Origin: Methylovirgula sp. HY1
GTDB taxonomy: Bacteria > Pseudomonadota > Alphaproteobacteria > Rhizobiales > Beijerinckiaceae
Length of the DNA: 64,000 nt
Direction: 5' to 3'
Assembly (NCBI RefSeq): GCF_019343105.1
Contig: NZ_CP073764.1
Location: forward strand, 1,860,001-1,924,000
Every line of letters begins with the position of its first letter. The first letter of the stretch is position 1. Positions 49,941-57,486 of this stretch are shown in pieces. The notes beneath the pieces were generated by a model. It had not been told where the DNA came from. It saw only the letters and a program-made list of their open reading frames with translations, and did no database searches. The translations under genes and the position numbers were made by a program.

Positions 49941-50840
49941 CTAACCTCGCTTCGCCACGATGACCCGTTCGATCCCAGCGAGATCGCGCTTTGCGCCCAT
50001 CACGCTGAGCCCTGCCGCTTTCAACAAATCGCCAACGCCTGACGCCTGTCCGATGCCGAATTCGAAGCCGGCGATCCCTTCAGGCGCAAGCAAGTGTGGC
50101 AGTGCCGGCGCGAGCGCGCGATAGGCGGCAAATCCATCGTCGCCGCCGTCGAGCGCCAGCATGGGATCATAATCACGGACATCGGGAGCGAGCGTCGCAA
50201 TCTCGGCATGCGCAATATAGGGCGGGTTCGACACGATGATATCGAAGCCGCCGCGCAGGGCCTTCGTCCAATCGCCGCAGACAATCATCCCGCGCGCGGA
50301 AAAACCGAGCGCATCGAGATTTTTCGCGGCCACCCGGCAAGCCGCTTTTGATACATCGACGCCAATTCCAAAAGCCTGCGGGAAAGACACGAGCAGCGCG
50401 CATAAAAGCGCGCCGGAGCCGGTGCCGAGATCGAGAAGGCGCAAAGGCGCATCGCGGCGCTGCGCCATCGCCGCCAGCACCGCCTCGACCAATGTCTCCG
50501 TGTCGGCGCGCGGATCGAGCACCGCCGGACCGATCGCCAGATCGAGGCCCCAAAATTCGCGGCGGCCGAGAATACGCGCAACCGGCTCGTGCTTCGCCCG
50601 GCGCGCCGCGAAACAGGCGAGCCTTTCGATCGCTTCCGCGCCTTGGGCACCGATCGGCTTGTCGCCATCGCGCAGGAAGACGGTGTGATCGATCCCGAGC
50701 GCGGCGCAGAGAAGCATCCGCGCCTCGGTCATCGCTTCGCCCTGCCCCGATCTGGCGCCCGCGAAAAATTTCGCAAGCTGGCGCTGCACGGCACTCAGCG
50801 ATGCGGCGGGATCGAGGACGAGCGAAGGCTCCTGCCTCAT
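49941..50840 (-). CDS. prmC: Release factor glutamine methyltransferase PrmC
   Basis: 299-residue methyltransferase that modifies the GGQ glutamine of release factors RF1 and RF2. The S-adenosylmethionine-binding pattern LRLLDLGTGSGALLCALLVSFPQ and the catalytic IIVSNPPYIAH motif are present. The start ATG overlaps the htpG stop (ATGA), so the two genes form an operon. In other Rhizobiales prmC usually follows prfA and precedes the DUF4167 gene; here it is separated from both. Confidence 0.92.
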   Translation of the reverse strand: MRQEPSLVLDPAASLSAVQRQLAKFFAGARSGQGEAMTEARMLLCAALGIDHTVFLRDGDKPIGAQGAEAIERLACFAARRAKHEPVARILGRREFWGLDLAIGPAVLDPRADTETLVEAVLAAMAQRRDAPLRLLDLGTGSGALLCALLVSFPQAFGIGVDVSKAACRVAAKNLDALGFSARGMIVCGDWTKALRGGFDIIVSNPPYIAHAEIATLAPDVRDYDPMLALDGGDDGFAAYRALAPALPHLLAPEGIAGFEFGIGQASGVGDLLKAAGLSVMGAKRDLAGIERVIVAKRG

Positions 50841-52801
50841 GCAGCCGGTTCGCGCGCAGCTTTGAGCAGGATGCGGGTGAGCCGCGTCGCAAAGCCGCTG
50901 GCGTCTTGCGGCTTCTCGCCTTCCATCAGCCGCGCCTCTTCGAAAAGAAGCCAGATGATGTCGTCGAGCGTCGCCTTATCCGCCTGGCCGACGCGTTCGG
51001 CGAGCACGCTGACGAGCGGGTGCGTCGGATTGATTTCGAGCACGGGTTTCGACAAGGCGCCCAATTGGCCATGCTCAGCCAGCATGCGCTCGAGACGCCG
51101 ATCCATGCCATGGTCGGGCGCAATCAGACAGGCAGGGCTCTCGGACAGCCGATCGGAGGCGCGGACATCGTCTACCACGTCGGCAAGCTCCTGCTTCATC
51201 AAAGCAAAGAGACTGGCGAGCTGGCCGGAAGGCGGTTCGGCAGCCGGCGTTTCCTTGCCCGCTTCGGGCGCGATGGATTTGATGTCGGCAGCACCTTGCG
51301 ACACCGATTTGAACGGCTTGCCGTCATAGCCGACAGCCGTCGAAACCCAGAAGGCATCGATCGGATCGGACAGCAGCAAAACCTCGATGCCGCGGCTGCG
51401 AAAACCTTCGAGCTGCGGGCTGACGTTGAGCCGCTTCACTTCTTCGCCGAGCAGATAATAGATCGCCGTCTGGTTCGGCCGCAGCGCGGCGACATAATCG
51501 GCGAGGCTGCGCTTGCCTTCGGGATAGGTAGAGGTCGTGAAGCGGGCGAGCTTGAACAAAGCGTCGCGCCGTTCCGGGTCTTCATAGAGCCCCTCCTTCA
51601 TGACAGCGCCGAAATGCGACCAGACATTTGCATAAGCTTCTGCGTCGCTCTCCGAAAGTTTCGTGAGTTCCTGCACGACGCGATTGGTCACCGCCTTCTT
51701 GATCGCCGCATAGACCGGACTTTCTTGAATCATCTCGCGCGACATATTGAGCGGCAGATCGGCGGAATCGACGACGAGACGGACGAAACGCAGCCAGCCG
51801 GGCAGAATCTCCGCATCCTGCGCAATCAGCACATGGCGAACATAGAGCTTGCCGCGGCCTTTGCGCGCCGGATCGAAGAGATCGAAAGGTTGCGAGCCCG
51901 GAACGAAGGCCAGCACCGAATATTCATGCCGGCCCTCGGCACGCCAATGCAGCGTGAGCGCCGGCTTGTCGAACTGGCCGGAGAGATTGCGATAGAACTC
52001 CGTATAATCATCGTCGCTGACGGCGCTTTTAGGCTTCGTCCAAAGCGCCGAGCCATCGGTGATGCGGCGCGGCTCACGCGGCTTTTGCGCCGCCTCCTCG
52101 GCCGCATCCTGCGGCGGCGTCTCCGCGGCCGGTTCCTGCCCGAGTTCGACGAGTTCGACCGGCACCGCGATGGCGCTCGAATAATCGCGCAGGATTCTCT
52201 CGACGCGATAGGCATCGAGATAGTCGTCACTCGTCTCGTTCAAATGAAGAATGACTTTGGTGCCACGCGCCGGCGCCTCTTCGAGCGGCAGCGGCACAAT
52301 GGAAAAGCTGCCCCTGCCGTCCGAACTCCAACGATAGGCCTCGCTGGTCCCGGCGCGGCGCGACAAGACATCGATATGGTTGGCGACCATGAAGGCCGAA
52401 TAAAAGCCGATGCCGAACTGGCCGATCAGATCGCTGCCGACCGGCCCGTCCTCTTTCGCATCAGCCCGCAGCTTTTCCAAAAAGGCGCGCGTGCCGGACC
52501 GGGCGATCGTGCCCAGCGAACTCGCCAGCTCCTCCTTGGACATGCCGATTCCATTATCGGTGACGGTCAAAATCCGATTGGCCTTATCGAGGCCCACCGT
52601 GATGAGAAAGCCTGGGCAATCTGCCGTCAGCGACGGATCGGCCAGAGCCTCGTGACGCAATTTCTCACAGGCATCAGCGCCGTTGGACACGAGTTCGCGC
52701 AGAAAAATATTGCGTTCGGAATAGACCGAATGGACCATGAGATCGAGAAGCCGGGCCACATCCGCCTGGAATGCATGGGTCTGGCCGTCCATCTCCGTCA
52801 T
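50837..52801 (-). CDS. htpG: Molecular chaperone HtpG (Hsp90)
   Basis: 654-residue Hsp90. GHKL ATPase motifs at the N-terminus are complete: LRELVSNGADACEKLRHEAL, TVTDNGIGMSKEEL, GTIARSGTRAFLEKL, QFGIGFYSAFMVA; the middle domain has LNMSREMIQESPV and the C-terminal dimerisation domain ends the protein. I choose ATG 52801 (MTEMDGQTHAF), which has GGAGGG seven bases upstream; the open frame extends 73 codons further but into the candidate small RNA. A possible heat-shock promoter is at 52874-52903. Co-transcribed with prmC. Confidence 0.96.
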   Translation of the reverse strand: MTEMDGQTHAFQADVARLLDLMVHSVYSERNIFLRELVSNGADACEKLRHEALADPSLTADCPGFLITVGLDKANRILTVTDNGIGMSKEELASSLGTIARSGTRAFLEKLRADAKEDGPVGSDLIGQFGIGFYSAFMVANHIDVLSRRAGTSEAYRWSSDGRGSFSIVPLPLEEAPARGTKVILHLNETSDDYLDAYRVERILRDYSSAIAVPVELVELGQEPAAETPPQDAAEEAAQKPREPRRITDGSALWTKPKSAVSDDDYTEFYRNLSGQFDKPALTLHWRAEGRHEYSVLAFVPGSQPFDLFDPARKGRGKLYVRHVLIAQDAEILPGWLRFVRLVVDSADLPLNMSREMIQESPVYAAIKKAVTNRVVQELTKLSESDAEAYANVWSHFGAVMKEGLYEDPERRDALFKLARFTTSTYPEGKRSLADYVAALRPNQTAIYYLLGEEVKRLNVSPQLEGFRSRGIEVLLLSDPIDAFWVSTAVGYDGKPFKSVSQGAADIKSIAPEAGKETPAAEPPSGQLASLFALMKQELADVVDDVRASDRLSESPACLIAPDHGMDRRLERMLAEHGQLGALSKPVLEINPTHPLVSVLAERVGQADKATLDDIIWLLFEEARLMEGEKPQDASGFATRLTRILLKAAREPAA

Positions 52802-52873
52802 TTCGTACCCTCCAGAATAATGATTGATCGATGCGCGCACGAATGGCGCGCAACTCCGCGTCGCGGTAGCTGT

Positions 52874-52903
52874 GATATCGCCTTTGTGAAAGCCGGATTC
52901 AAG
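52874..52903 (-). promoter_or_regulatory. Candidate heat-shock promoter of htpG
   Basis: On the minus strand CTTGAAT and CGATATC are 17 bases apart in the expected places for an alphaproteobacterial RpoH promoter (-35 CTTGAA, -10 like C-C/G-x-TAT). The implied start lies about 65 bases upstream of the htpG ATG. Assignment from two short hexamers only. Confidence 0.4.
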
Positions 52904-52989
52904 GGAGACTGTAGCAGCGCAAAAAGACATCTGCGCGCCCGCGCATATTCGTCGTGGTGATCGCCTGTTTGCAAATAGGCAAAACCGGC

Positions 52990-53029
52990 AAAAAAAGAGC
53001 CGGCTGAAGCAAGGCTTCAAACCGGCTCT
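52990..53029 (-). terminator. Rho-independent terminator (minus strand)
   Basis: Stem AGAGCCGG/CCGGCTCT with an inner TGAAGC/GCTTCA stem, followed on the minus strand by a run of six U. It cannot end htpG, prmC or the DUF2794 gene, because all are outside its reach or on the other strand, so it must serve the candidate small RNA. Confidence 0.85.
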
Positions 53030-53226
53030 AAGGAGTCGCCACTATAAATCGACGAGAGTTCGGACCTACGATTCCCCAGGGGGGCTGGGGGGCTGACGAA
53101 TCCAGAGGAATCGAACGGGGCCCGAACGGCGACAATTGGAGATTGGCTGAGCAACAGGGCGCCGGCTGGGCTGCAAAAGGGCGAAACTGTGATTTCAGCG
53201 GCCCCCTGCAGATTCCCAATCAAAGT
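52990..53226 (-). ncRNA. Candidate small RNA upstream of htpG
   Basis: About 235 nt. On the minus strand a sigma-70-like promoter (CTGACA at 53261-53256, 17-base spacer, AATAAT at 53238-53233) stands in front of a GC-rich transcript that ends at a strong Rho-independent terminator (hairpin with 8-bp and 6-bp stems at 52996-53029, then six to seven U). No gene with a ribosome binding site begins inside it; a 95-codon open frame crosses it but starts upstream of the promoter. I could not match it to tmRNA, 6S RNA, SRP RNA or RNase P RNA by their conserved blocks. Confidence 0.5.
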
Positions 53227-53375
53227 AATTTTATTATTTAGACACAGCGACTTATTGTCAGCTGACTCAGCTTGCGGCGGGCCTCGCGCGCAGCCTCCAC
53301 TCAAGCTTCGTCAAAACGTCACGCAAGGCTTGCCGCACACCCAGCTTTCCGCAATCATGCGCGGCGGAGGTGCTC

Positions 53376-53783
53376 ATGAGCGCGGAGTCTACTGAAGATT
53401 GTCAGCCAGCGGGCCGGGTGGTTCCCCTCGTCGAGGGAAGAAGTTCCAAAGCCGCCTGGCCCGCCCCCCTTGCCGCCGTCCCTGGAAAGGTCGCCTTCGA
53501 CCGAACCGAGCTGCGGCAGATTCTGGATCTCTATGGCCGCAAGGTCGCTGATGGCGAATGGCGCGACTATGCGATCGAATTCACGAGCCAGAAGGCCGTG
53601 TTCTCGATCTATCGGCGAGCCGCGGAATTTCCCTTGTACCGCATCGAAAAGACCGGACGAATGGTCCGCCAACAAGGCGCCTATAGCGTGCTTGCCGCGA
53701 ACGGTCGCGTGCTGAAAAGCAGCCATGATCTGGCCCCCATCATCAAGGCTCTCGACAAGCAACTCACACTCGTTTCGGGATGA
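53376..53783 (+). CDS. DUF2794 family protein
   Basis: 135-residue protein of the DUF2794 family, nearly restricted to Rhizobiales. Recognised by FDRTELRQILDLYGRKVADGEWRDYAIEF and by FSIYRRAAEFPLYRIEKTGRM...QQGAYSVLAANGRVLK. The function is unknown. The start ATG 53376 has GGAGG five bases upstream. It converges on a Bax-inhibitor-1 gene across a shared terminator. Confidence 0.88.
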   Translation: MSAESTEDCQPAGRVVPLVEGRSSKAAWPAPLAAVPGKVAFDRTELRQILDLYGRKVADGEWRDYAIEFTSQKAVFSIYRRAAEFPLYRIEKTGRMVRQQGAYSVLAANGRVLKSSHDLAPIIKALDKQLTLVSG

Positions 53784-53811
53784 GCTCGCCTACCTGGGCC
53801 TGCGCATCGGC

Positions 53812-53858
53812 AAAAAAAATCCCCTTCGCCCGGCGGGCGAAGGGGACGATATTTTTTT
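53812..53858. terminator. Bidirectional Rho-independent terminator
   Basis: Perfect hairpin CCCCTTCGCCCG-G-CGGGCGAAGGGG region (53821-53845) flanked by eight A on the left and seven T on the right, so it can end transcription from both convergent genes, DUF2794 and the Bax-inhibitor-1 gene. Confidence 0.9.
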
Positions 53859-53872
53859 GAGACCGTCTATTC

Positions 53873-54661
53873 TCAGTTGTTGCGCGATCCGGTGAGATAG
53901 AGCAGCGACTGGAAGATGTTGATGAAATCGAGATAGAGCATCAACGCGCCATTGACCGATTTCTTGGTCGCGACCTCGTAATCGTCCGACGCATAATACA
54001 TGTCCTTGATCGCCTGCGTATCCCAAGCGGTGAGGCCTGCGAAGATCAGAACGGTCAGGATCGACAGGCCGAACTGAAAGGCCGAGCTGTGCAGGAAGAG
54101 GTTCACAACGCTGGCAATGATCAGCCCGAACAGACCCATCATCAGGAATGAGCCCATGGCGGAGAGATCGCGCTTGGTCGTATAGCCGTAGAGGCTCAAA
54201 GCACCGAAAGCAGCCGCTGTCTCGAAAAAGGCCCGGTACACCGACGCGCCGGTGTAGATCAGCAGGACTGTCGACAGCGACAGACCCATGGCCGCCGAGA
54301 ACAAATAGAATGTGTTGCGTGCCGTCGCGGCCGACATCTGGCTGAGGCGGAACGAGAAGAAGAACACGAAGCCGAGCGGGGCCAGCATCACCAGCCATTT
54401 GAGCGGCGTCATGTAAAGCGCCTGGCCGAGCGGGGTCAGCATCATATGGCCGATGCCGACGACCGGGATCGCCGCCGCGGCGGGATCGGTCGTGACGGCG
54501 AACATGTTCACGCCATAGGCGACCAAGCCGGTGATTGCGAGGCCCATCACCATATTGTTGTAGACGCCGAGCATGTAAGAGCGAAGGCCCTGGTCGATTT
54601 CGGCGCGCCCGCGGACGGCCCCTTGCCCCCAACGGACAGCGTTGCGATCGAAGTCGGACAT
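53873..54661 (-). CDS. Bax inhibitor-1/YccA family membrane protein
   Basis: 262-residue inner-membrane protein of the BI-1/YccA family with seven transmembrane segments. Pattern YNNMVMGLAITGLVAYGVNMFAV, PLGFVFFFSFRLSQMSAATARNTFYLFSAAMGLSLS and the end FAGLTAWDTQAIKDMYY...LYLDFINIFQSLLYLTGSRNN is typical. Members are thought to be pH-dependent calcium-leak channels or to protect membrane proteins from FtsH; the role here is unknown. GAGGAAACT precedes the ATG. Confidence 0.92.
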   Translation of the reverse strand: MSDFDRNAVRWGQGAVRGRAEIDQGLRSYMLGVYNNMVMGLAITGLVAYGVNMFAVTTDPAAAAIPVVGIGHMMLTPLGQALYMTPLKWLVMLAPLGFVFFFSFRLSQMSAATARNTFYLFSAAMGLSLSTVLLIYTGASVYRAFFETAAAFGALSLYGYTTKRDLSAMGSFLMMGLFGLIIASVVNLFLHSSAFQFGLSILTVLIFAGLTAWDTQAIKDMYYASDDYEVATKKSVNGALMLYLDFINIFQSLLYLTGSRNN

Positions 54662-54912
54662 AGTTTCCTCACGGGTTCAGGAGGCTTCACCGCCTCCGTG
54701 CGCGCTCTCTGCGCCGAATCTAACGGCCAGACAGGCACTACAGGATAATACAGCGCAGGGTCTGACGCAAAGCTGCGTCCAACACGAATATGCTGCGACC
54801 TTCCCCATCCCGGCGCGCGAAACCGCAAAACCAAGATGGAGCGTCGCCGGTAATATGGCGCCGGATCGGGCTCCGTACAAGGGCGCCGAGGCTTAGTCTG
54901 GCCCGGCGCAAC

Positions 54913-57486
54913 CTAAAGATTTCGTAAATATTGGGCGGGTTTGCGGCCCAAAATGCGAAAGGTGCCGGCGAGGCCCAGCAGAACCGCCGCCGCCAGGGCG
55001 CCGAACGCGGCAACCAGCGCCTGCGGCCAAAACCAGACGAAATCGAGCTTCATCACGAAGCGGACTACGGCGAGCGCGGCGAGGCTGCCGGCCACCACGC
55101 CGAAACCCGCCGTGGCAAGCCCGATGAGCCCAAATTCGCAGAGGAAAGCGACCACGAGCCGCGCGCGCGTCGCGCCCAGAACTTTCAAGATCACGCTGTC
55201 ATAAAGCCGCGTCTGCTGACCGGCGGCCAGCGCGCCGCCGAGCACGAGTGTTGCCGTGACCAGAGCCACGCTCGCGGCGCCGCGAACCGCGAGTGCGAGC
55301 TGATTCACCACATCCTTGATGGCATCGAGCGCATCCTTGACGCGCAGGCTCACCACCGCGGGAAACGTCTTGGCGACCGCCCGCACCAGCGCGACATCCC
55401 GGTCGGACTTATCGCTTTTGGGAAAAGTCATCGTCGCGAGATCACTGTAGGGCGCGCCGACAAATGTGTGCGGCGAAAAGACGAGCACGAAATTGATCCC
55501 GAAATCGCGCCAATCGACATGCCGCAGATTGGCCACGCGCGCGGTGATCGTGCGGCCGAGGACGTTGACGCTGATTTCGTCGCCGACCCCAAGACCGAGC
55601 CCATCGGCGACATCGGCGGCGAGCGAAACAAGCGGCGGCCCGGCATAGGCTTTGTCCCACCATTTGCCAGCGATGATTTTGGACCCTTGCGGGACGGTCT
55701 CGGCGAAGGTAATGCCGCGATCGCCCAACAACGCCCAGGCCGCCTTGTCCTTCACTTTCGCCTTGGCGATTGGGATGCCTTTGAGCGCGGTGATCCGGCC
55801 GCGCAGCATGGGGACGAGTTCCATTTTTCCGCTTTTGGCATAGCGTCCGAGAAAGCTGCGAAAATCCTCTGCCTGCGCCGCTGGGATGCCGAGAAAGAAA
55901 AAGCTCGGCGTGACGCCCGGCTGCGACCGATCCAGCTCACGCCGCAAATTGGCATCGATGAGGGCAAGGCCGACGAGCAAGGTGAGGCCGAGGCCGAGCG
56001 ACAGCACGATGGACGGCGTCAAGGCGCCGGGCCGATAGAGATTGGCGAGCGCGAGCCGCAGCTCGACGCGGCGCGGCCGCGGCGCTCTTTTGGCGGCCGC
56101 CATGAGAAGTCCGGCGGCACCGCGCAAAAAGACGAAGCCGCCGAAACAGGCGGCGAGATAGGTGAGCGCCAGCATCCGGTCGGCGGTGAAAAACAGCACC
56201 GCCGCCGCCAGGCCGGCCGCGGCCGCGCCGGCCATGACGCGGTAGCGCCATCGCACACGTGTCGTCTGCGGCGCCACCTCATCTCGGAACAGTGCCGAAA
56301 CCGGCACGTCATGCACGCGGCCGAGCGGCCCTAGGCAAAAGGCCAGCGCCGTCAATGTCCCATAAAGCAGGCCAGCGCCGATCTCGCTCGGATAGAGTGC
56401 TGGCGCGAGCGGAAACGGAATGAGCCTGACGAACGCCGCATCGAGCACGAAAGGCAGCGCCGAGCCTGCCACGACGCCGATCGCCATGCCGATCGCGGCC
56501 ATAGACATCACTTCGCAGAGCATGATCGCGAAGACCAAGCTGCCGGTGGCACCGAGCGCCTTCAAAGTCGCAATGACTGGCTTCTTGCGCTCGACGAACA
56601 CATGCACCGCATTGGCGACGCCGACGCCGCCGATGATCAACGAGGTCAGACCGACCAGCGTGAGAAATTGGCTGAATCTTTCCAGGCCGCGCGAAAATTC
56701 CGGCGACACGTTTTTGCGCGTGCGAATTTCAAAGCCGGCATTCGGCAGCGCGGCGCGCACGGACGCCGCGACGGAGGCGAGCTTGGCATCGCTTGGCGGC
56801 AAGGCGCCGGGCATCGAAACACGATAAAGCCAGGTGACCAGCGCGCCCGGCATCAGGAGATGCGTCGCCCGTAAGCCCGCTTGCGACATCAGGACTCGTG
56901 GCCCGAAGCCGACACCGCCGGCGAGCTTGTCGGGCTCGGAGGTCAAATCGGCGCGCAAGGCAAAGGTCTGAGCCCCGATCCTGAATCGATCGCCGCGCTT
57001 GAGGCCGAGCCGCGCGGTAATCATCGGATCGGCGGCAACGCCATAGGCGCCGTCGCGCAGCGCCAGCACCTCGGCCAAAGGCTTTGGCGGATCGAGTTCG
57101 ACCGCGCCTTGCGTTGGATAGGAACGATCCACCGCCTTGATCTCGACCAGCGCCGATTGGCCATCGGCTGTTCGCGCCATGGCACGCATCAGCGCCACTT
57201 GCGCAAGCTGGCCAAAGCCGGAGAGCACTTGGCGTTCAGGCGCGGTCGCCTCGCGCTGGACCAGCCCGAAAGAAATGTCGCCGCCGAGAATGATGCGGCC
57301 CTTTTGCGCCAGCCCGTCGTTCAGCGCATGCGCGATCGCGCCGACACCGGTGATCGCCGCGACGCCCAGAGCGAGACAGGCGAGAAAAATGAAGAAGCCG
57401 GAAAAGCCGCCGCGGAAATCGCGCAAAGCGAGGCGAAGCGCGAGAGGAAGCCGAGAGCCCCCGGAGGGTTTGGAATGCATGGCCAT
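54913..57486 (-). CDS. ABC transporter permease, YbbP-like (FtsX fold)
   Basis: 857-residue permease with two FtsX/MacB-type halves: about ten transmembrane segments arranged as 1+3 helices, a long periplasmic loop, a second set starting near 440 and a final trio of helices (GVVAGSLAALAVVRFVM, LVAAFGALAAAVLLGLAGTFRILG). It matches YbbP-like proteins whose usual partner ATPase (YbbA) is 2.6 kb away here. ATG 57486 (MAMHSKPS) or 57480. The partner gene pair normally lies next to an arylesterase (TesA), also found here. Confidence 0.88.
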   Translation of the reverse strand: MAMHSKPSGGSRLPLALRLALRDFRGGFSGFFIFLACLALGVAAITGVGAIAHALNDGLAQKGRIILGGDISFGLVQREATAPERQVLSGFGQLAQVALMRAMARTADGQSALVEIKAVDRSYPTQGAVELDPPKPLAEVLALRDGAYGVAADPMITARLGLKRGDRFRIGAQTFALRADLTSEPDKLAGGVGFGPRVLMSQAGLRATHLLMPGALVTWLYRVSMPGALPPSDAKLASVAASVRAALPNAGFEIRTRKNVSPEFSRGLERFSQFLTLVGLTSLIIGGVGVANAVHVFVERKKPVIATLKALGATGSLVFAIMLCEVMSMAAIGMAIGVVAGSALPFVLDAAFVRLIPFPLAPALYPSEIGAGLLYGTLTALAFCLGPLGRVHDVPVSALFRDEVAPQTTRVRWRYRVMAGAAAAGLAAAVLFFTADRMLALTYLAACFGGFVFLRGAAGLLMAAAKRAPRPRRVELRLALANLYRPGALTPSIVLSLGLGLTLLVGLALIDANLRRELDRSQPGVTPSFFFLGIPAAQAEDFRSFLGRYAKSGKMELVPMLRGRITALKGIPIAKAKVKDKAAWALLGDRGITFAETVPQGSKIIAGKWWDKAYAGPPLVSLAADVADGLGLGVGDEISVNVLGRTITARVANLRHVDWRDFGINFVLVFSPHTFVGAPYSDLATMTFPKSDKSDRDVALVRAVAKTFPAVVSLRVKDALDAIKDVVNQLALAVRGAASVALVTATLVLGGALAAGQQTRLYDSVILKVLGATRARLVVAFLCEFGLIGLATAGFGVVAGSLAALAVVRFVMKLDFVWFWPQALVAAFGALAAAVLLGLAGTFRILGRKPAQYLRNL

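What the first reader, a model, noticed from the sequence alone, without database searches (positions are those of the whole stretch)
52990..53261. Candidate small RNA with its own promoter and terminator
A near-consensus promoter (CTGACA, 17-base gap, AATAAT) and a strong minus-strand terminator frame about 235 bases that contain no gene with a ribosome binding site. The terminator cannot belong to any neighbouring gene. No known RNA family fits by its conserved blocks. This is the best candidate in the window for an undescribed element.
Basis: seen in the sequence. Interest (0 to 1): 0.7.

Follow-up and report, generated by a model that had tools for sequence, protein, structure and literature searches.

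The report
BjrC174 small RNA beside htpG
The stretch does look like a small regulatory RNA gene, but of a kind already catalogued (BjrC174, first named in Bradyrhizobium); comparing genomes suggests it is more widespread than its label says and starts at a different promoter, one that resembles binding sites of the cell-envelope stress regulator ChvI.

Summary
The sRNA is very probably real, but it is not undescribed. The minus strand at 53210-52993 matches Rfam RF02355 (BjrC174) over the full model, 50.0 bits against a cut-off of 45. Bradyrhizobium and Rhodopseudomonas members of RF02355 lie at the same place, just upstream of a divergent DUF2794 gene, so this is the syntenic orthologue. Comparison of 108 loci puts the promoter about 93 bases further down: GCC-N8-GCC-N8-GCC (53182-53158), a -10-like box at 53145-53140, +1 near 53133, so about 144 nt. 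GCC-N8-GCC is the ChvI consensus reported for Sinorhizobium (second-hand, PMC9731502); ChvG-ChvI control is the leading inference, not shown. The RNA is a covarying hairpin with a nearly invariant C-rich loop and a terminator. Likely action: loop pairing with G-rich mRNA sites; no target was found. A model built here hits 82 of 101 genomes of the order, 42 of 289 of the class, and 26 of 200 of the phylum, the 26 all within the class.

The parts
52990..53133 (-). Predicted sRNA transcript, about 144 nt (BjrC174 orthologue)
   Evidence: RF02355 match at 53210-52993; +1 from the 108-locus comparison; fold -61.8 kcal/mol, z -4.81
53158..53182 (-). GCC-N8-GCC-N8-GCC, candidate ChvI operator (half-sites 53182-53180, 53171-53169, 53160-53158)
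   Evidence: At least 8 of 9 letters in 38 of 48 core-selected loci, shuffles 1.45 +- 1.2; exact here
53180..53192 (-). Conserved TCACAGTTTCGCC block at the upstream edge of the promoter
53140..53145 (-). -10-like box CAATCT
   Evidence: Aligned position has A in 76% at its second base
53035..53133 (-). Hairpin region: P1 GUCGCC 53133-53128 with GGCGAC 53040-53035; outer stem 53127-53119 with 53066-53058; inner stem 53113-53105 with 53077-53069
   Evidence: Fold; covariation of the homologous stems; P1-like pairing enriched
53079..53095 (-). Nearly invariant loop CAGCCCCCCAGCCCCCC (two AGCCCCCC units), candidate seed
52990..53029 (-). Intrinsic terminator: hairpin 53029-52996 and seven U
53233..53261 (-).
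53370..53783 (+). Divergent neighbour, DUF2794 (PF10984)
50837..52801 (-). Downstream co-directional neighbour, htpG

Best explanation
This is the Beijerinckiaceae orthologue of the BjrC174 small RNA. It is transcribed as an independent RNA of about 144 nt from a promoter that carries three GCC half-sites around the -35 region, most likely activated by the response regulator ChvI (ChvG-ChvI envelope-stress system). The RNA folds into a long hairpin that presents a fixed C-rich loop with two AGCCCC units, and ends at an intrinsic terminator. The loop most likely pairs with G-rich sites near ribosome-binding sites and changes translation of those mRNAs. Shown here by comparison: family match, synteny, covarying hairpin, nearly invariant loop, phased GCC repeats. 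Inferred: start site, ChvI as regulator, antisense action. Unknown: targets. Separate likelihoods: sRNA and BjrC174 orthologue 0.93; promoter and +1 as placed 0.75; ChvI 0.55; loop acts by mRNA pairing 0.6.
For: RF02355 above cut-off; same place beside DUF2794 as in Bradyrhizobium and Rhodopseudomonas; covariation, 59 double-change cells against 16.0 +- 6.2 in shuffles, 8 of 8 pairs; core in 35 of 84 DUF2794-upstream regions within 2 mismatches; GCC triple in 38 of 48 core-selected loci, only at period 11, 20 of 28 when loci found through RF02355 are left out; the block keeps its place by the hairpin in three inverted loci; GCC-N8-GCC given as S. meliloti ChvI consensus in PMC9731502; ChvG and a neighbouring OmpR-type regulator present here; co-occurrence with the ChvG domain, 40 of 42 against 124 of 247 genomes; PMC4842269 reports strong promoter activity for BjrC174 without a mapped RpoD or RpoN motif.
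Against: No transcript or binding data for this organism. The GCC triple is unremarkable in one sequence (4 in the window, 2.78 expected). The Caulobacter ChvI motif in the same paper is different (TTGC-N3-GCAA). Upstream of chvI here there is no GCC-N8-GCC on the gene's strand and one on the other strand. Co-occurrence with ChvG is confounded by ancestry, and 2 of 42 class genomes and 2 of 82 order genomes with the RNA show no ChvG match. No target found. The 241-nt form from the upstream promoter also folds better than shuffles (z -3.93), so folding does not choose between start sites. The 20 class-level loci give only a weak consensus fold.
Confidence: 0.6

Rival explanations
1. Same RNA family, but transcribed from the upstream promoter named by the first reader, giving about 235 nt; the TCACA/GCC block is then part of the RNA, as the Rfam model boundaries imply.
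For: 10-of-12 promoter match; the Rfam model covers 53210-52993; the 241-nt form folds with z -3.93; congener L015 has sigma70-like matches upstream too.
Against: Site count within chance; no such match in L005, L013, L017; near-fixed spacing of the GCC block and its 11-base period suggest DNA; the predicted 5' bases pair in P1.
Confidence: 0.15
2. The RNA is real and starts at the GCC promoter, but the activator is another OmpR-type regulator, not ChvI.
For: Direct repeats with 11-base period are general for this regulator type; CenR uses TGA-N8-TGA (PMC9275681); Caulobacter ChvI motif differs.
Against: The half-site here is GCC, as in the quoted S. meliloti ChvI consensus; association with ChvG.
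Confidence: 0.3
3. Cis-acting leader or attenuator of htpG rather than a trans-acting sRNA.
For: htpG is co-directional and downstream here, in 11 of 64 named loci with enough flank, and in 4 of 9 loci away from DUF2794 or second copies.
Against: 53 of 64 named loci showed no htpG within the flank held; inverted in three loci; an RpoH-like site lies between terminator and htpG at 52903-52875.
Confidence: 0.05
4. A small protein gene.
For: Open frames cross the region.
Against: No family match; the three frames are about equally open (72, 68, 65 of 111) and GTTGCC-to-core distance is spread over the phases (21, 16, 14); strong covariation.
Confidence: 0.02

Closest known systems
BjrC174 (Rfam RF02355), sRNA of Bradyrhizobium japonicum
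   Same: Full-model match above cut-off, C-rich loop, same place beside DUF2794
   Different: 50 bits here against 168-181 in five Bradyrhizobium/Rhodopseudomonas loci; loop has 6+6 C here, 5 C in the first run of the Bradyrhizobium sequences shown
ChvR of Caulobacter crescentus (PMC6237742, passages)
   Same: sRNA predicted here, and shown there, to be under ChvI
   Different: ChvR lies upstream of recF and was reported without BLAST conservation beyond C. crescentus; sequence homology to this RNA was not tested here
GsrN of Caulobacter (PMC5869019, passages)
   Same: C-rich loop; works by pairing with G-rich mRNA sites
   [quoted passage not shown] BLAST homologues limited to Caulobacteraceae
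EcpR1 of Sinorhizobium meliloti
   Different: Loop UCCGCCGCAUCU, encoded between divK-pleD and rpmG

Membership tests
BjrC174 (RF02355) | Covariance-model score at or above the gathering score | tested here: met
   50.0 bits, cut-off 45, model 1-201 of 201
BjrC174 (RF02355) | Same genomic place as the Bradyrhizobium members | tested here: met
   Upstream of divergent DUF2794 in both
BjrC174 (RF02355) | Expressed as an abundant small RNA | not testable with these tools
   No transcript data for this organism; PMC4842269 calls the B. japonicum RNA abundant
ChvI-activated sRNA (as ChvR) | ChvI-type operator at the promoter | tested here: inconclusive
   GCC-N8-GCC-N8-GCC conserved and equal to the second-hand S. 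meliloti consensus; binding not testable
ChvI-activated sRNA (as ChvR) | ChvG-ChvI present in the genome | tested here: met
   ChvG sensing domain at G000:C1:2086030-2086365, OmpR-type regulator beside it
EcpR1 | Loop UCCGCCGCAUCU and place beside rpmG | tested here: not met
   Loop is CAGCCCCCCAGCCCCCC; neighbours are DUF2794 and htpG; published loop
GsrN | General-stress sigma promoter and general stress locus | not tested
   No scan for that promoter type was run; neighbours are DUF2794 and htpG

The most novel reading that the evidence does not exclude
RF02355 is the visible edge of a class-wide family: an ancestral ChvI-activated envelope-stress sRNA of Alphaproteobacteria, encoded next to DUF2794 (and often htpG), whose seed loop of two AGCCCC units has been held nearly fixed across many families and which has become a set of three to five genes in one genus. 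The first third of the present Rfam model would then be promoter DNA, not RNA.
Probability: 0.45. Interest if true: 0.7.

Novelty: new member of a known kind. Interest (0 to 1): 0.5.

Why it matters
Rfam labels the RNA as a Bradyrhizobiaceae sRNA, and no function for it was found in the one held paper that names it. The comparison makes it an order-wide and probably class-wide gene with a fixed seed, and gives a cheap test: does ChvI switch it on? ChvG-ChvI governs envelope stress and host association in this class; in the passages read here ChvR of Caulobacter is the sRNA shown to be under it, and the promoter region of a second, CCNA_R0088, is bound by it.

Tried and rejected
EcpR1 was considered because it is a widespread sRNA of the order; rejected on loop sequence and location. 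c-di-GMP-I riboswitch and SorY: weak cmscan matches, 17.1 and 16.3 bits, below gathering scores of 35 and 111. tRNA/tmRNA: none at 50000-56000. Regulon search with CACAGTTTCGCC-N8-GCC in the whole genome: 191 matches at up to 3 mismatches against 181 for the reversed control, so no sign of a regulon; that listing did not show the window's own exact site, which one search confirms. Targets: the 13-letter complement of the core with up to 1 mismatch occurs at the locus itself and once more, inside a long plus-strand ORF away from its start. Duplex energies of the loop against 54 crude gene starts in the window were no better than for shuffled loops (best -30.3 against a mean best of -30.4); htpG did not appear in that list, presumably displaced by the longer antisense ORF, so htpG was not tested there. 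htpG as obligatory partner: rejected. CCNA_R0088 of Caulobacter as possible orthologue: its place could not be found.

Rows dropped: one search left out 8 of 56 loci (near-duplicates or weak cores); one search left out 9 of 56; one search kept 111 of 145 after core and redundancy filters; one search used 108 of those 111, chosen by the GCC score itself, so its logo is partly circular at the GCC columns; one search used 106. One search found DUF2794 in 91 of 101 genomes; 84 upstream regions were examined. One search was given 16 of the 80 named loci. A notebook line gives 18 of 28; the recount is 17 of 27 outside this family.

Full report
The observation. The promoter is a 10-of-12 match, but two such matches were found in 6 kb where 1.3 +- 1.1 are expected. 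The terminator is strong: hairpin 53029-52996 plus seven U, -23.4 kcal/mol, z -5.67. The TTG ORF across the span has no Pfam or NCBIfam match.

What it is. A scan of the window against all Rfam families gives one match above threshold: RF02355, BjrC174, at 53210-52993 minus, 50.0 bits, cut-off 45, model 1-201 of 201. So the claim that no known family fits is wrong. Of 16 named loci given to Rfam, 6 match RF02355; the five from Bradyrhizobium and Rhodopseudomonas score 168-181 bits and lie immediately upstream of a divergent DUF2794 gene. Here too the neighbour is DUF2794 (53370-53783 +). I take this as the orthologue of BjrC174.

Spread. RF02355 itself finds 21 of 60 relatives at E <= 0.001, 8 of 60 above cut-off; 20 of the 21 carry the core, L021 does not and is probably a chance match. 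I then looked without it: DUF2794 occurs in 91 of 101 genomes of the order; of 84 upstream regions examined, 22 hold the exact 17-base core and 35 hold it within two mismatches, where 0.30 matches within three mismatches are expected in 64 kb. A covariance model R1 was built from 47 loci. R1 hits 70 of 80 named DUF2794 loci, among them Bradyrhizobium, Rhodopseudomonas, Afipia, Microvirga, Methylobacterium (four loci, 24.6 to 46.5 bits), Bosea, Kaistia and Ancylobacter; the ten misses are Methylocapsa acidiphila, Beijerinckia mobilis, Enterovirga, Labrys, two Aureimonas, three Paracoccus and one MAG. R1 hits 82 of 101 genomes of the order, 42 of 289 of the class and 26 of 200 of the phylum, each of the 26 in the class or closer; how many of the 200 lie outside the class was not listed. 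Of 30 loci from the class search, 19 have DUF2794 on the same short locus, 17 of the 27 that lie outside this family. Three of the 70 named loci (two Ancylobacter, one MAG) carry the unit inverted, hairpin and GCC block together.

Anatomy. A MAFFT alignment of 47 loci and its consensus fold give a hairpin in which all eight predicted pairs show double changes: 59 double-change cells against 16.0 +- 6.2 in shuffles, and 89.9% of cells paired against 14.8 to 57.6% when the partner is slid. A set of 44 non-redundant named loci gives a similar stem with compensatory changes; the 20 class-level loci give only a weak consensus fold. The apical loop carries CAGCCCCCCAGCCCCCC, that is two AGCCCCCC units; 14 columns of the 47-locus alignment are invariant, 12 of them in the core (the loci were chosen for the core, so this overstates it). 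In this genome the RNA from 53133 folds with P1 GUCGCC/GGCGAC, outer stem, inner stem, open C-rich loop and terminator, -61.8 kcal/mol, z -4.81. The hairpin without terminator is less remarkable (z -1.3 to -1.5), and the longer 241-nt form also beats shuffles (z -3.93), so folding alone does not fix the start. P1-like pairing of the first bases with the segment after the hairpin is enriched: at least 7 pairs in 29 of 106 loci, 4.8 expected.

Promoter. Upstream of the hairpin lies a block with nearly fixed spacing: TCACAnTTTCGCC, then GCC-N8-GCC-N8-GCC, a -10-like box whose second base is A in 76%, and GTTGCC at offset 49 from the first GCC. The triple is at least 8 of 9 letters in 38 of 48 core-selected loci (27 perfect), shuffles 1.45 +- 1.2, largest 6, and other periods from 6 to 16 give 0 to 4; restricted to loci found by synteny and core alone, 20 of 28 with 12 perfect. 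The loci are related, so this measures conservation, not independent events. In a single sequence the triple is not unusual: 4 in this window against 2.78 expected. Here the half-sites are 53182-53180, 53171-53169 and 53160-53158, the box CAATCT is 53145-53140 and +1 is predicted near 53133.

Regulator. A GCC-N8-GCC repeat is the ChvI consensus reported for S. meliloti, as stated in the discussion of PMC9731502 (passages); the original paper was not held. The lead came from recall of ChvR and was then checked in PMC6237742 (passages). This genome has one PF13756 sensing domain (which I recall as that of ChvG) with an OmpR-type regulator beside it. In the class sample 40 of 42 genomes with R1 have that domain against 124 of 247 without R1, P 4e-9; in the order sample 80 of 94 genomes above the domain's cut-off have R1 against 2 of 7 others, P 0.002. 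Shared ancestry and genome reduction explain part of this. Against: the Caulobacter ChvI motif in PMC9731502 differs; upstream of chvI here there is no GCC-N8-GCC on the gene's strand and one on the other; CenR is an alternative with TGA half-sites (PMC9275681, passages). The strong BjrC174 promoter without RpoD or RpoN motif in B. japonicum (PMC4842269: section 16 and part 1 of section 15 read) fits an activator-dependent promoter; that paper does not mention ChvI, ChvG or DUF2794.

Action. A fixed, unpaired C-rich loop on a variable stem suggests an antisense seed; GsrN of Caulobacter works this way with six C against G-rich sites (PMC5869019, passages). No target could be named: no long complement was found elsewhere in the genome, and a crude scan of gene starts in the window gave nothing above shuffles. 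htpG is co-directional and downstream here, in 11 of 64 named loci with enough flank and in 4 of 9 loci where the RNA is away from DUF2794 or is a second copy. But an RpoH-like site lies between terminator and htpG at 52903-52875 (the RpoH consensus is partly recalled, partly from PMC4842269), and the other 53 of 64 loci showed no htpG in the flank. A leader function is therefore unlikely.

Novelty. The RNA is a member of a catalogued family. New here, as far as the searches in the held library show (listings, with passages read in some of the papers), are its order- and class-wide spread, the DUF2794 synteny and the ChvI-type promoter. The 2012 paper that named BjrC174, and its report that the RNA is more abundant in nodules, are recalled, not read.

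Noticed in passing
52875-52903 (minus): RpoH-like promoter CTTGAA-N17-CGATAT between the sRNA terminator and htpG; the only CTTGAA-N16-18-C[CG]ATNT in the 64 kb window.
   Followed up: partly
L229-L234 with L134, L138, L141 (genomes G172, G299, G395): One genus of another order has three to five R1 copies per genome, some in tandem, with loop AGCCCCCAAGCCC and GCC-like promoter blocks.
   Followed up: partly
L242 (genome G084): The sRNA lies about 1.9 kb downstream of chvI-chvG and directly upstream of htpG.
   Followed up: partly
L170:1922-2064 (Oryzicola mucosus): Another catalogued sRNA, BjrC1505 (RF02356, 76.6 bits), lies near DUF2794 and about 110 bases from a weak R1 match.
   Followed up: no
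53819-53847: Strong hairpin with T-runs on both sides between DUF2794 and the convergent Bax1-I gene, a likely bidirectional terminator.
   Followed up: no
50348-52960 (plus): An 870-codon open frame antisense to htpG, probably a by-product of GC-rich coding sequence.
   Followed up: no
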